From Burkholderia sp. USMB20 (GTDB lineage Bacteria > Pseudomonadota > Gammaproteobacteria > Burkholderiales > Burkholderiaceae): 64,000 nt of DNA. Location: positions 310,001 to 374,000 of the forward strand of contig NZ_JTAN02000019.1 of the NCBI RefSeq assembly GCF_000949135.2. Direction: 5' to 3'. The notes beneath the pieces are model-generated. The model was not told the DNA's origin. It saw nothing but the letters and a program-made list of their open reading frames with translations, and did not search any database. Positions within the stretch are counted from its first letter, which is position 1. Every line of letters starts with the position of its first letter. This document shows, one piece after another, positions 36,848-46,808 of the stretch. A program made the translations under genes and the position numbers.

Positions 36848-37690
36848 ATGTTCAGCAGATCGTTTCGCACTACGTCGGGCCACGCGCTGTGCGTCGCCGC
36901 CCTCCTTTCCGTTTTTTCCGGCGTCGCCCGCGCGGACAGCACGCTCGATCGCATCCATCAACGTCACACGATCACGATCGGCGTGATCCTGTCGGGCCCG
37001 CCGTTCGGCTCGCTCGATCCCGCGACGCAAAAGCCGGTCGGCTTCAACGTCGATCTGGCGAACGACGTCGCGAAACGACTCGGCGTCGACGTCGAGCTGA
37101 CACCGGTTCAGCCGTCGAACCGCGTGCAGTTCCTGCAGCAGGGCAAGGTCGACGCGCTGATCGCCAACATGGAGCTGACGACGGAGCGCGCGGAGATACT
37201 GTCGTATGCGCCGACGCCGTTCGAATCCATCGGCGGCGCGCTGATCGCGCGCAAGGACAGCGGTATCAAGTCCTGGGCCGACTTGCGCGGCAAGCCGGTC
37301 TGCGTGTCGCAAGGCAGCAACTACACGAAGCCGCTCGCGACGGAATACGGCGCGCAGGTGAAGGCCTTCCGCGGCCAGCCGGAATCGCTGCTCGCACTTC
37401 GCGGCAACAACTGCGTGGCCGCCGTGCACGTCGCGCCGACGTTGCGCATGCTCGTCGCGCGCAACCCCGACTGGAAGGACTACACGACGCCGCTGTCGAC
37501 CGACCTGATTCCGTCGCCGGCGGTGATCTGGGTCCGCAAGGGCGAGACCGACACGCAGGGCGCGCTCGACCGGATCGTTCAGGATTGGCACCGCAGCGGC
37601 TGGCTGCTCGACGTCGAGCGCAAGAACGGCATGACGCCGTCGCAAGCCGTGCTCGACCTGCACGCGAAGCTCAAGGCGCAGCGCACATGA
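36848..37690 (+). CDS. Amino acid ABC transporter substrate-binding protein (family 3)
   Basis: 280 residues. The start at 36848 gives a signal peptide (about 1-29, ending V-A-R-A); the frame is open upstream but without a signal there. The mature part has the family-3 pattern: L-D-R-I-H-Q-R-H-T-I-T-I-G-V, P-V-G-F-N-V-D-L-A-N-D-V-A-K-R-L-G, V-D-A-L-I-A-N-M-E-L-T and W-A-D-L-R-G-K-P-V. It captures a small polar amino acid-like solute in the periplasm. It heads a four-gene transporter operon with overlapping genes. The convergent monooxygenase and MmgE/PrpD genes suggest an organosulfur amino acid such as S-(2-succino)cysteine; that is inference. Confidence 0.92.
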   Translation: MFSRSFRTTSGHALCVAALLSVFSGVARADSTLDRIHQRHTITIGVILSGPPFGSLDPATQKPVGFNVDLANDVAKRLGVDVELTPVQPSNRVQFLQQGKVDALIANMELTTERAEILSYAPTPFESIGGALIARKDSGIKSWADLRGKPVCVSQGSNYTKPLATEYGAQVKAFRGQPESLLALRGNNCVAAVHVAPTLRMLVARNPDWKDYTTPLSTDLIPSPAVIWVRKGETDTQGALDRIVQDWHRSGWLLDVERKNGMTPSQAVLDLHAKLKAQRT

Positions 37691-38421
37691 CGGTGGCCGC
37701 CGCGGTCGATGCGCTCCGCAAGTTCGGCCTCGATTACAGCTTCGTGCTCGCCGCGGACGAACGCGCGTCGTTCGTGCACGGGATGGGGGTGACGCTCGAA
37801 CTGTCGATCGCGACCGCGGTCGGCAGCCTCGCCTGCGGCGTCGTGCTCGCCGCGCTGCTGGTATCGCCGAGCGCGGCGCTCGCGCGCCCCGCGCGCGCAT
37901 TCGTCGAGGTCACCCGCAACACGCCGACGCTCGTGCAATTGTTCTGCGCGTTCCTCGTCGTCAACATGCTGATCAGCGCCGCACTGCGCAATTTGGGCGG
38001 CAATCCGCTGACGCCGTTCATCTGGAGCGTGATCGTGATCTCGCTGCACAAGGGCGCGTTCCATGCGGAAGCGCTGCGCGCCGGCCTCGAAGCGGTACCG
38101 CGCGCAACGCTCGAGGCCGCGCAGTCGCTCGGCTACAGCCGCCGCCAGCGGCTCTGGCACGTGCAGCTGCCGCTCGCGATACGCTTCGCGCTGCCCGCGC
38201 TCGTCAACAACCTGGTCGATCTCGTGAAGATGACGACGGTCGCCTCGGCGATCGCCGTCGGCGACGTCACCTATGCGTCGATCATGATCTGGACGCAGCG
38301 CGACAACGTGCTCGAGTTGATGATCCTGATCCTGCTCTTCTTCGGCGCGCTCACGTTCACGGTCAACCTCGCGGGACGTTGGCTGGAACACCGCCTGAGG
38401 ATACCCGGCTATGGCCATTGA
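37687..38421 (+). CDS. Amino acid ABC transporter permease 1
   Basis: 244 residues, starting at the ATGA overlap with the binding-protein stop. Several membrane helices and the HisM/GlnP signature: V-E-V-T-R-N-T-P-T-L-V-Q-L, and the EAA loop with E-A-L-R-A-G-L-E-A-V-P, then E-A-A-Q-S-L-G-Y-S, which contacts the ATPase. It probably pairs with the next gene's product to form the inner-membrane channel. Confidence 0.93.
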   Translation: MTVAAAVDALRKFGLDYSFVLAADERASFVHGMGVTLELSIATAVGSLACGVVLAALLVSPSAALARPARAFVEVTRNTPTLVQLFCAFLVVNMLISAALRNLGGNPLTPFIWSVIVISLHKGAFHAEALRAGLEAVPRATLEAAQSLGYSRRQRLWHVQLPLAIRFALPALVNNLVDLVKMTTVASAIAVGDVTYASIMIWTQRDNVLELMILILLFFGALTFTVNLAGRWLEHRLRIPGYGH

Positions 38422-39196
38422 CATGCACGCGCAGCCCGCGCGCCTCGTGCGATGGCGCGCCGTCGCGGCAACCCTGGCCGCGCTGGCCGTCGTCGCGCTG
38501 GCCGTCGCGGGCCGCCGTCACCCGACCCTCGTCGCGCTCGCCACGTGGCTGCCGGCGCTCGGCAAGGCGATGCTGATCAACATCGGCATCAGCGCGATCG
38601 CGATCGCGATCGGCACGCTCGCCGGCCTCGTACTCGGCCCGCTGACGCTGTCGCGGCTCGGCATCGCGCGCGTGCTGGCGCGCGCGTACGTGCAGTTGTT
38701 CCGCAACGCGCCGCTGCTCGTGCTGATCTATTTTTCGACCTACGTGTTCCCGTTCGAAATCAGGTTCGGCCATGCGTCGCTGCCGTTTCCGGACTGGTTC
38801 AAGGTAACGCTCGGTCTCGCGCTGCCCGCGAGCGCGAACTTCGCGGAAATCTTCCGCGGCGCGATCCAGTCGATTCCGCACGCGCAGTGGGACGCCGCAC
38901 GCTCGCTCGCGTTCAGCCGCGCGCAAGTGTTCCGCTGGATCATCCTGCCGCAATGCGTACGCCGCATGCTGCCGCCGTGGATGAACCTGTATGCGAGCAT
39001 CGCGATGGCCACCGCGCTCGCGTCGCTGGTCGGCGTGCACGACCTGCTCGACACCGCGCAGGTCGCGAGCAACACCGTCGCGCGAGCCGACTTCACCGTC
39101 GTCGTCTATTTCACGGTACTCGGCCTGTTTTTCGCGTACTGCTACCCGATCGCCCGTTTCACCCGCCTTCTCGAAAGACGTCATGCATTCCACTGA
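38411..39196 (+). CDS. Amino acid ABC transporter permease 2
   Basis: 261 residues, overlapping the first permease gene by 11 bases. Membrane helices (A-L-A-V-V-A-L-A-V-A near the start) and the signature Y-V-Q-L-F-R-N-A-P-L-L-V-L-I, then F-R-G-A-I-Q-S-I-P and A-A-R-S-L-A-F-S in the EAA loop. Two different permeases in one operon imply a heterodimeric channel like HisQM. Confidence 0.93.
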   Translation: MAIDMHAQPARLVRWRAVAATLAALAVVALAVAGRRHPTLVALATWLPALGKAMLINIGISAIAIAIGTLAGLVLGPLTLSRLGIARVLARAYVQLFRNAPLLVLIYFSTYVFPFEIRFGHASLPFPDWFKVTLGLALPASANFAEIFRGAIQSIPHAQWDAARSLAFSRAQVFRWIILPQCVRRMLPPWMNLYASIAMATALASLVGVHDLLDTAQVASNTVARADFTVVVYFTVLGLFFAYCYPIARFTRLLERRHAFH

Positions 39197-45268: not shown

Positions 45269-45587
45269 TGAAGTGCGGCCACCAGAAGCGGCAGAGGCCT
45301 CTCCAGCTTGACACGCTCGTTGCTTGCGCACGGACTTGCCTGATCGCTTCGGACCATTTCAGTCCTGGTTCGTGCGCACGGCGATTCGCCGTCCACCGCG
45401 TTCGCTGAACAACCTGCCGAAGGTCGAGCAACCGGCGCGCGTGGTGGGCATGCACGAAAGTGCCTGTCTCGCGCGTTTCGCGGCAACCTCGGACCGACGA
45501 TATTCGATTCTCCGCGGTACGAGCGCCTGCGAATCGCGCGGTCTCAGCCGGATTGGATCCGACGTCGCCCGCCGTTGCGTCACGCAC
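45269..45587. other. Intergenic region between convergent genes
   Basis: About 320 bases between the His-rich protein gene and the end of the M20 gene. No gene, terminator hairpin or repeat was recognised. Confidence 0.45.
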
Positions 45588-46808
45588 TCACGACGATCGC
45601 GTGAAGTAACGCTGTGCCAGGGCGACCCAGTAGCGAACGCCGGCCGGAGTGATGTCGTCGTTGAAATCGTACGTCGGGTGATGCAGCGCCGGCGCGGCCG
45701 CTCCCGCCGGCGCGTTGCCGATCAGCACGTACGCGCCCGGGCGCTCCTCCAGCATGAAGCCGAAGTCTTCGGACGTCATGTTCGGCGGCACGTCGGGGTG
45801 AAGCCGCTCGTCGCCGAACGTGTCGCGAATCACAGCTTCGCAGAGTGCGGTCTCGGCCGGCGTGTTGACCGTCGCCGGATAGTACTGAAAGAATTCGATG
45901 TCGACTTGCGCACCATAAGCCGCGGCCAGCCCTTCGCACACGAGCCGGACGTCGCGCTGCAGCTGTTGCTGCAATGCCGACGACAGCGTGCGGATCGTCC
46001 CGCGCAACTCGGCGTTGTCCGGAATGACGTTGTCCGTCGTGCCCGCATGGAACATGCAGACGGAAATGACGGCTGGGTCCACCGGATCCTTGTGCCGCGC
46101 GGCAATGGTCTGACACTGCAGCACCATCGAACAGGCGAGCGGCACGGGGTCGATGCCCAGGTGCGGCTGCGCCGCATGCGCGCCCTTGCCCGTCACCGTG
46201 ATCCTGAATCGGCAGCCGGCGGCCATGATGGCGCCGGTGCGCAACCCGAACTGCCCGGCCGGCAAACCGGGCCAGTTGTGCATGCCGAACACGGCTTCCG
46301 TCGGACATTGCGCGAACAGCCCGTCGTCGATCATCTTGCGCGCGCCCGCGCCGCCCTCTTCCCCGGGCTGAAACACGAAATGCACGGTGCCCGGCAACTG
46401 CGGCAGGTCTTTCAGGATGCGCGCGGCGCCGAGCAACATGACGGTATGCCCGTCATGCCCGCACGCATGCATGACGCCTTGCGCGCCCGATGCGTGCGCG
46501 AAGTCGTTGGCCTCCTGGATCGGCAACGCATCCAGGTCCGCGCGGAGCACGATTCCGCGGCCCCGGTCCGCACCCGGCAGGCTCGCGACGACGCCCGTGC
46601 CGCCCAGCCCGCGCGACACCGCATAGCCGAGATCTTCAAGCTCGCGGGCGACGACGTCGGCCGTCCTGTATTCCTCGAACCGCAACTCGGGATGCGCATG
46701 CAGGTCGCGACGCAAGGTCGCCCAGTGTGCGCAATGGGCTTTCAGGGACGTCTCGGGGAAATCGGGATTATCCAATGTCGGCACCTTCGGAAAGTAGACG
46801 GCTTCCAT
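45588..46808 (-). CDS. M20-family amidohydrolase (hippurate/N-acyl-amino acid type)
   Basis: 406 residues from ATG 46808; a GTG six codons earlier is less likely because AGAGG sits just before the ATG. M20D metal site: H-A-C-G-H-D-G-H-T and P-G-E-E-G-G-A-G, then G-M-H-N-W-P-G-L-P-A-G-Q and a dimerisation domain with G-K-G-A-H-A-A-Q-P-H. Such enzymes remove N-acyl groups from amino acids (hippuricase, N-acetylcysteine deacetylase YxeP). It lies 36 bases after the aldehyde dehydrogenase gene in the same direction, so it may belong to that amine pathway, or serve the organosulfur genes 3 kb to the left. Confidence 0.92.
   Translation of the reverse strand: MEAVYFPKVPTLDNPDFPETSLKAHCAHWATLRRDLHAHPELRFEEYRTADVVARELEDLGYAVSRGLGGTGVVASLPGADRGRGIVLRADLDALPIQEANDFAHASGAQGVMHACGHDGHTVMLLGAARILKDLPQLPGTVHFVFQPGEEGGAGARKMIDDGLFAQCPTEAVFGMHNWPGLPAGQFGLRTGAIMAAGCRFRITVTGKGAHAAQPHLGIDPVPLACSMVLQCQTIAARHKDPVDPAVISVCMFHAGTTDNVIPDNAELRGTIRTLSSALQQQLQRDVRLVCEGLAAAYGAQVDIEFFQYYPATVNTPAETALCEAVIRDTFGDERLHPDVPPNMTSEDFGFMLEERPGAYVLIGNAPAGAAAPALHHPTYDFNDDITPAGVRYWVALAQRYFTRSS

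What the first reader, a model, noticed from the sequence alone, without database searches (positions are those of the whole stretch)
36848..46808. Gene set resembling the Bacillus yxe route for S-(2-succino)cysteine breakdown
An amino acid ABC transporter (binding protein, two permeases, ATPase), an NtaA/DszA-type flavin monooxygenase, an MmgE/PrpD protein and, 3 kb away, an M20 deacylase reproduce most of yxeKMNOPQ. In that pathway the N-acetylated compound is oxidised by YxeK and deacetylated by YxeP. The dedicated N-acetyltransferase (YxeL) is missing beside the set; the GNAT at 61942 is larger and far. This may be a rearranged beta-proteobacterial version with an unknown true substrate.
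Basis: partly seen in the sequence, partly recalled or inferred. Interest (0 to 1): 0.7.

Follow-up and report, generated by a model that had tools for sequence, protein, structure and literature searches.

The report
Acetylase-free cousin of yxe operon
A six-gene Burkholderia cassette, also found in rhizobia and Methylobacterium, looks like a stripped-down form of the Bacillus pathway that recovers sulfur from fumarate-damaged cysteine, and it suggests that the pathway's unexplained protein YxeQ converts one mirror-form of the damaged compound into the other.

Summary
The M20 deacylase is a chance neighbour: in seven Burkholderia genomes holding the cassette its block is on another contig (3) or at least 490 kb off (4). 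The cassette occurs in 38 of the 80 loci kept from one genome scan, with no YxeL acetyltransferase in the stretches held; 27 of 29 such genomes searched have no YxeL relative at E 1e-5, against 10 of 10 Firmicutes yxe genomes searched that do. So it is an acetyltransferase-free variant of yxe, not a rearranged complete copy. YxeQ accompanies either YxeK or the alternative lyase (2SL) and keeps the His/Tyr pair of iminodisuccinate epimerase. I infer that it epimerises the succino carbon of S-(2-succino) thioethers before the monooxygenase releases thiol and oxaloacetate. Substrate and epimerase role are untested; the monooxygenase's sister group is unresolved.

The parts
36660..42880 (.). Six-gene cassette: the stretch shared, at 91.6-94.6% DNA identity, with other Burkholderia genomes at other sites
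   Evidence: blastn ends at 36660-36664 and 42877-42925 in L035/L141 (both B. ubonensis), L041, L142, L143, L144, L145; their flanks differ from the window's
36848..37690 (+). Substrate-binding protein (SBP_bac_3); the ORF opens at 36737, but indels just before 36848 in other Burkholderia favour that start
   Evidence: PF00497 89 bits; alignment of 7 Burkholderia upstream regions
37687..38421 (+). Amino-acid ABC permease 1
   Evidence: PF00528, TIGR01726
38411..39196 (+). Amino-acid ABC permease 2
   Evidence: PF00528, TIGR01726
39183..40022 (+). Amino-acid ABC ATPase
   Evidence: PF00005 128 bits; 43.9% to YxeO
40024..41355 (-). YxeK-like flavin-dependent monooxygenase
   Evidence: TIGR03860 601.7 bits; 57.9% to YxeK; 100/100 clade of cassette monooxygenases
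41352..42719 (-). YxeQ-type MmgE/PrpD protein, inferred succino-carbon epimerase; ATGA overlap with the monooxygenase gene
   Evidence: PF03972/PF19305; YxeQ clade SH-aLRT 100; seven catalytic positions kept in 59 of 59 clade members; overlap
45588..46826 (-). M20 amidohydrolase: neighbour, judged NOT part of the cassette
   Evidence: 39% to YxeP; it and the adjoining aldehyde dehydrogenase gene match over at least 2.7 kb in 38 of 65 Burkholderia genomes, and lie on another contig (3) or at least 490 kb away (4) in the 7 cassette genomes

Best explanation
The cassette is an acetyltransferase-free, deacetylase-free variant of the yxe (scm) sulfur-salvage locus. The ABC transporter imports an S-(2-succino) thioether; since no YxeL is present, my guess is one that arrives N-acylated, such as N-acetyl-S-(2-succino)cysteine (2SNAC), or another succinated thiol. 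The YxeQ-type PrpD protein moves the alpha proton of the succino carbon by a His/Tyr two-base mechanism and so interconverts the two diastereomers that non-enzymatic addition of fumarate should produce. The YxeK-type flavin monooxygenase then oxygenates the succino carbon of one diastereomer and breaks the C-S bond, giving oxaloacetate and the thiol. Unlinked general M20 enzymes finish any deacetylation. Shown here: gene content, clade membership of PrpD, residue conservation, the lack of YxeL relatives in 27 of 29 genomes searched, and the monooxygenase-PrpD pairing. Inferred: substrate, N-acylation, epimerisation, reaction order, use as a sulfur source.
For: Monooxygenase 57.9% to YxeK, in its own 100/100 clade outside the YtnJ/3sdo clade, with 14 positions shared exclusively with YxeK versus 8 with the 60%-identical paralogue group (10 are shared by YxeK and that group). 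PrpD in one clade with YxeQ, stem 0.85, SH-aLRT 100, apart from 37 other PrpD rows and iminodisuccinate (IDS) epimerase. Pairing when the monooxygenase is the query: PrpD beside it in 7 of 7 Burkholderia and in 15 of 15 Rhizobiaceae genomes with at least 67% identity, against 0 of 2 with 60% homologues. In the order of B. mojavensis YxeQ occurs in 9 of 289 genomes, all among the 12 with YxeK and 2.8-4.0 kb from it. YxeQ also sits in 4 loci where a lyase takes the place of YxeK (the one scanned is Lyase_1/ADSL_C): since oxaloacetate and fumarate are the alternative products (PMC9706529), a step on the shared substrate is likelier than one on a product. Nearest PDB relatives are B. subtilis 'IRG1' (7bra, 7e9d) and IDS epimerase (for the monooxygenase list, 15 for PrpD); all seven catalytic positions of IDS epimerase including the Tyr are kept in 59 of 59. 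PMC12290011 (abstract and passages) reports that characterised family members act on substituted 1,4-dicarboxylates and calls the B. subtilis protein's reaction unknown.
Against: No biochemical or growth data. The catalytic residues are also kept in nearly all unrelated PrpD proteins of the tree, so they permit rather than prove epimerisation. 3 of 12 YxeK-bearing genomes lack YxeQ at the cut-off used. YxeK is reported inactive on unacetylated 2SC (PMC12757645, passages), so without YxeL the cassette must meet an N-acylated or different substrate, for which I have no positive evidence: the amine-binding Asp of amino-acid binders (recalled motif) is V in 39 of 45 cassette binding proteins, T in 1 and kept in 5, but 9 of 12 other binding proteins of the same loci lack it too. 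The transporter is only distantly like YxeMNO. The monooxygenase's sister group is unresolved. Beyond the six genes no family recurs in more than 4 cassette loci: an SfnB-like gene in 3 and M20 genes in 3 are the only named ones.
Confidence: 0.45

Rival explanations
1. It is a true 2SC pathway like that of B. subtilis, with the acetylation and deacetylation supplied by unlinked, non-orthologous enzymes.
For: All 39 genomes searched have M20 relatives of YxeP at E 1e-60 or better, and a GNAT unrelated to YxeL would have been missed by my searches.
Against: 27 of 29 cassette genomes have no YxeL relative at E 1e-5; the best M20 match per cassette genome is 38-44% to YxeP against 61-100% in the 10 Firmicutes; M20 genes lie in the held stretch of only 3 of 38 cassette loci.
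Confidence: 0.2
2. It degrades an N-linked succinyl amino acid or aminopolycarboxylate, such as iminodisuccinate, with the PrpD protein as epimerase and the monooxygenase cutting a C-N bond as NTA/EDTA enzymes do.
For: PrpD hits IDS epimerase with 222 bits; the monooxygenase family includes chains named nitrilotriacetate (426 bits) and EDTA (246 bits) monooxygenase.
Against: IDS epimerase lies outside the YxeQ clade; cassette monooxygenases are on average nearer YxeK (53%) than the YtnJ/3sdo group (45%), which is a separate clade.
Confidence: 0.14
3. It handles a different organosulfur compound (for example another S-alkyl thioether or a sulfone), and the PrpD protein is a dehydratase or decarboxylase acting on the released acid.
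For: The equally close 60% paralogues have another setting: in Nostoc one lies beside a gene annotated ssuD, and in several Burkholderia beside other luciferase-family ORFs.
Against: YxeQ also accompanies the 2SL-type lyase, whose product is fumarate (PMC9706529); residues important in mammalian cis-aconitate decarboxylase are reported absent from 7bra (PMC7347537, passages).
Confidence: 0.17

Closest known systems
Bacillus subtilis yxe (scm) operon, S-(2-succino)cysteine breakdown
   Same: YxeK-type monooxygenase (57.9%), YxeQ-type PrpD (44.6%, same clade), amino-acid ABC transporter
   Different: No YxeL, no YxeP; two permeases instead of one; binding protein only 28% to YxeM; in Burkholderia the transporter and enzyme genes converge on opposite strands
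2SL variant of the yxe locus (PMC9706529)
   Same: YxeQ-type PrpD and a dedicated enzyme that removes the succino group
   Different: 2SL is a lyase giving fumarate; the four such loci found here keep YxeL and YxeP
Iminodisuccinate epimerase (2hp0) and methylsuccinate isomerase (PMC12290011)
   Same: Fold family and, for IDS epimerase, catalytic residues; substrates are 2-substituted succinates
   Different: Different clade from IDS epimerase; N- or methyl-substituted, not S-substituted; methylsuccinate isomerase was not in my tree
B. subtilis 'IRG1' (7bra)
   Same: It is YxeQ: its aligned segment is 86% identical to yxeQ in the B. mojavensis operon and nests with it
   Different: Deposited under a decarboxylase gene name; PMC12290011 says there was no evidence of that activity
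S-alkylcysteine salvage with CmoO/CmoJ (that YtnJ is CmoJ is recalled)
   Same: NtaA/DmoA-family monooxygenase
   Different: YtnJ lies in a separate clade; CmoJ acts on a sulfoxide made by CmoO (PMC10863075, abstract)

Membership tests
yxe (scm) locus as defined in PMC9706529 | At least three of five components (K, L, MNO, P, Q) clustered | tested here: met
   K, Q and a transporter present; the transporter is a weak match to YxeMNO, so met only if any amino-acid ABC transporter counts
yxe (scm) locus as defined in PMC9706529 | YxeK with more than 50% identity to the B. subtilis enzyme | tested here: met
   57.9% over 439 aa, measured to B. mojavensis YxeK; B. subtilis YxeK itself was not at hand
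Complete B. subtilis-type 2SC pathway | YxeL acetyltransferase | tested here: not met
   None in the window, 0 of 38 cassette loci, 2 weak hits in 29 genomes; the window's own genome is not held
Complete B. subtilis-type 2SC pathway | YxeP deacetylase in the cluster | tested here: not met
   M20 gene within the held stretch in 3 of 38 loci, 4.1-6.4 kb away; the window's M20 block is not near the cassette in its relatives
YxeQ clade of MmgE/PrpD | Groups with YxeQ apart from other PrpD proteins | tested here: met
   59-row clade, SH-aLRT 100, quick tree of 97 rows without bootstrap
YxeK clade of monooxygenases | Sister or member of Firmicutes YxeK | tested here: inconclusive
   Fork open; AU p 0.263 for a joint clade, the competing test with the 60% group not finished
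2-substituted succinate epimerases | His/Tyr two-base pair and carboxylate-binding residues | tested here: met
   H85, D88, H99, Y145, H150, K198, K266 (2hp0 numbering) in 59 of 59
2-substituted succinate epimerases | Epimerase activity | not testable with these tools
   Needs an enzyme assay

The most novel reading that the evidence does not exclude
YxeQ-type PrpD proteins are S-(2-succino) thioether epimerases that make both diastereomers of fumarate-damaged thiols available, and proteobacteria carry a moving, acetyltransferase-free cassette that salvages sulfur from already N-acylated (or non-cysteine) succinated thiols taken up from the surroundings.
Probability: 0.4. Interest if true: 0.65.

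Novelty: new variant of a known kind. Interest (0 to 1): 0.5.

Why it matters
YxeQ is the component of the yxe locus that PMC9706529 lists with unknown function, and its crystal structure is deposited under a decarboxylase gene name. If the epimerase reading holds, both are explained, and stereochemistry becomes part of how cells repair fumarate damage. The acetyltransferase-free cassette would show that acetylation, which that paper calls a conserved breakdown step, can be dispensed with or outsourced.

Tried and rejected
M20 as a member of the set: rejected. Window GNAT as YxeL: rejected (my first frame for it, 61893-62927, used as a query and scanned, was wrong). Mobile-element ends: junctions printed and repeats listed; no terminal repeat stood out to me. 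Promoter and terminator scan: nothing found. A CTTGGTT-like string upstream of both transcription units is no better than chance for its length by my own estimate, so I dropped it. The AU test of cassette monooxygenase with the 60% group did not finish. No structure prediction was run. Neighbour survey: ORFs were picked by greedy length in GC-rich DNA, so antisense shadow ORFs may have displaced real genes and neighbours may be missed.

Literature searches, all in the held open-access library: 2SC/YxeK (30 papers, 20 listed), YxeQ/bsIRG1 (5 papers), IDS epimerase (7 papers), YxeK with monooxygenase, succino and active site (577 papers, 15 listed), ScmQ (14 papers, the 10 listed unrelated), MmgE/PrpD with flavin oxidoreductase, amino-acid transporter and sulfur (1 paper, unrelated), succinocysteine with diastereomer (none), 2SC with Rhizobium and monooxygenase (1 paper, unrelated). 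None of these listings or the passages read showed an epimerase proposal for YxeQ. The 2018 founding paper and the YxeK enzymology paper are not held, so they may contain one; the figure of PMC9706529 that lists organisms cannot be seen.
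Full report
Observation. On the plus strand lie a family-3 binding protein, two amino-acid-type permeases and an ATPase; on the minus strand, converging on them, an MmgE/PrpD gene and an NtaA/DmoA-family monooxygenase gene whose start overlaps the PrpD stop as ATGA. Against the yxe operon of B. mojavensis (L019, K-L-M-N-O-P-Q in order) the monooxygenase is 57.9% identical to YxeK over 439 aa, PrpD 44.6% to YxeQ, ATPase 43.9% to YxeO, permeases 28-31% to YxeN, binding protein 28% to YxeM, and the nearby M20 39% to YxeP. 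No YxeL is in the window.

The true unit. Within the stretches held, DNA similarity of this region with B. ubonensis (L035) and Burkholderia sp. Bp8963 (L041) runs from 36,663 to 42,877 and 42,925, at 94.4-94.6%. In five cassette regions fetched from held Burkholderia genomes, one of them B. ubonensis again, the match runs from 36,660-36,664 to 42,877-42,902 at 91.6-94.6%, with flanks unlike the window's; several of those genomes share flanking DNA among themselves. Of 65 genomes searched in the genus, 7 carry the monooxygenase at 97% or more, and 7 of 7 have ATPase, monooxygenase and PrpD together. The M20 gene with the adjoining aldehyde dehydrogenase gene matches over at least 2.7 kb in 38 of 65 genomes, by my count of the listing. 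In the 7 cassette genomes it is on another contig (3) or on the same contig at least 490 kb away (4). These are drafts: in one of the three (G018/L041) only 0.6 kb lies beyond the PrpD end of the cassette, so closeness there is not formally excluded. The M20 gene is thus best read as a chance neighbour.

Distribution. In 38 of the 80 the monooxygenase (at least 66% to the window's) and PrpD occur with all four transporter genes; in 36 of 38 monooxygenase and PrpD are adjacent, and in L034 and L062 the transporter lies between them. None of the 38 has a YxeL hit and 3 have an M20 gene, 4.1-6.4 kb away; a few of these loci are cut by contig ends. Of 15 Firmicutes loci, 8 have YxeK, 14 an M20 gene and 12 a YxeL-type gene; of the 7 without YxeK, 4 carry a lyase of the 2SL type (L033 scanned as Lyase_1/ADSL_C) and 3 neither. 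The remaining 27 are other PrpD genes. Because PrpD was the query there, I repeated the test from the monooxygenase side: in 394 Rhizobiaceae genomes 17 match at the cut-off; 15 have 67% or more and 15 of 15 have PrpD beside the gene, while 2 with 60% do not (four of the 15 genomes were already known from the scan). The cassette is rare: at E 1e-110, 2 of 385 Alphaproteobacteria and 1 of 399 Burkholderiales, the centre genomes included (only the first four candidates per genome were scored). In 289 genomes of the order of B. mojavensis, YxeK (E 1e-180) was found in 12 and YxeQ (E 1e-90) in 9, all 9 among the 12 and 2.8-4.0 kb from it; 3 have YxeK without YxeQ. Among plasmids 26 records matched at 60-80%; I opened 7 of the 20 listed: four have the set (L001 with one permease and an unrelated binding protein), and three at about 61% have no PrpD.

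No acetyltransferase. YxeL was sought in 39 whole genomes (40 handles given, one not held), covering 29 of the 38 cassette loci and 10 of the 15 Firmicutes loci. It was found in 10 of 10 Firmicutes (three loci without a YxeL hit in their stretch, L026, L029 and L031, were not among the ten) and in 2 of 29 cassette genomes, one partial at 43% and one at 29%. The best YxeP relative per genome is 61-100% in the Firmicutes and 38-44% in the cassette genomes. Apart from the six genes and what I read as their antisense shadows, no gene family recurs in more than 4 cassette loci; four such families are confined to close Agrobacterium/Rhizobium relatives, M20 genes recur in 3 loci of three genera, an SfnB-like acyl-CoA dehydrogenase-family gene in 3, and a few unidentified families in 3.

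Trees. Monooxygenases (68 rows; 30 near-copies or fragments left out beforehand): the window sits in a 100/100 clade of cassette enzymes; Firmicutes YxeK is a 100/99 clade; YtnJ and 3sdo fall together in another, 100/98; the order among cassette, YxeK and the 60% group is open. A joint cassette+YxeK clade is not rejected (p 0.263). Exclusively shared positions: 14 cassette-YxeK, 8 cassette-60% group, 10 YxeK-60% group, a mild lean only. By mean identity the cassette enzymes are about as near the 60% group (54.5%) as YxeK (53.4%). PrpD (97 rows, quick tree without bootstrap; hits under 300 aa and loci from L099 on left out): YxeQ and all cassette PrpDs form one clade, SH-aLRT 100, stem 0.85, with IDS epimerase and 37 other PrpDs outside. 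7bra, deposited as 'Bacillus subtilis IRG1', nests with B. mojavensis YxeQ, so it is YxeQ.

Mechanism. PMC12290011 (abstract and passages read) reports that characterised MmgE/PrpD enzymes act on 1,4-dicarboxylates through C2 proton transfer, that IDS epimerase and methylsuccinate isomerase use a catalytic Tyr besides the His, and that the B. subtilis protein's reaction is unknown. PMC7347537 (abstract and passages) says the IDS epimerase active site is completely conserved in the B. subtilis protein while two residues of the mammalian decarboxylase are not. Here all seven positions are kept in 59 of 59 clade members, but also in nearly all of the 37 other PrpDs of the tree, so this is permissive evidence. 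The stronger argument is genetic: YxeQ accompanies a monooxygenase that yields oxaloacetate or a lyase that yields fumarate (PMC9706529: abstract, sections 4 and 10, and passages read), so it probably acts on the shared substrate. That substrate has one alpha-acidic stereocentre in a succinyl unit, and non-enzymatic fumarate addition should give both forms (recalled chemistry). An epimerase that is useful but dispensable also fits its absence from 3 of 12 YxeK genomes. For the monooxygenase I adopt the reaction reported for YxeK; C-S cleavage by a flavin peroxide is described as proposed in PMC10863075 (abstract and opening text read).

Substrate. YxeK is reported specific for N-acetyl-2SC and inactive on 2SC (PMC12757645: abstract and passages). 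A cassette without YxeL therefore meets an already N-acylated compound, has relaxed this need, or acts on another succinated thiol. In the binding protein the carboxylate-binding Arg is kept in 45 of 45, while the Asp that binds the amino group in amino-acid binders (a recalled motif) is V in 39, T in 1 and kept in 5; YxeM lacks it in 13 of 13. But 9 of 12 other binding proteins of the same loci lack it too, so this says nothing firm, and the N-acylated substrate remains a guess.

Known or new. By the published definition, at least three of five components, this cassette can be counted a yxe locus, and loci like it may be among the 102 surveyed there; I could not see that figure. What I did not find in the held library is an epimerase role for YxeQ or a description of the acetyltransferase-free group. 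The window's organism is a Burkholderia not identified to species: its cassette is up to 95.2% identical over 4.3 kb to those of the genomes held, and the M20 block up to 91%.

Noticed in passing
window 42921-43669: VapB-like antitoxin and PIN-domain, VapC-like toxin pair just outside the right end of the cassette.
   Followed up: partly
window 32859-34381: The outer-membrane efflux (OEP) gene downstream of the RND pump reads in two frames, each part matching PF02321, so it looks interrupted. Described only.
   Followed up: no
window 45577-53146: A block with M20, aldehyde dehydrogenase, FAD oxidase and cupin genes, an AraC-like ORF (by reading only) and a second FAD oxidase that is conserved as a unit in other Burkholderia; SBP_bac_5 transporter genes follow at 54560-58166.
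   Followed up: partly
PDB 7bra / 7e9d: The structure named B. subtilis IRG1 is YxeQ; a misleading public name.
   Followed up: yes
L040 and L045, about 3526-8700: Paraburkholderia carries an SfnB-like gene and two further NtaA-family monooxygenases (37% to YxeK and 60% to the window enzyme) upstream of the cassette's PrpD gene.
   Followed up: partly
window 41352-42719, PrpD residues H103, R107, D316, R331, R386: Residues nearly fixed in the YxeQ clade but rare in the other PrpD proteins compared; candidates for substrate specificity.
   Followed up: no
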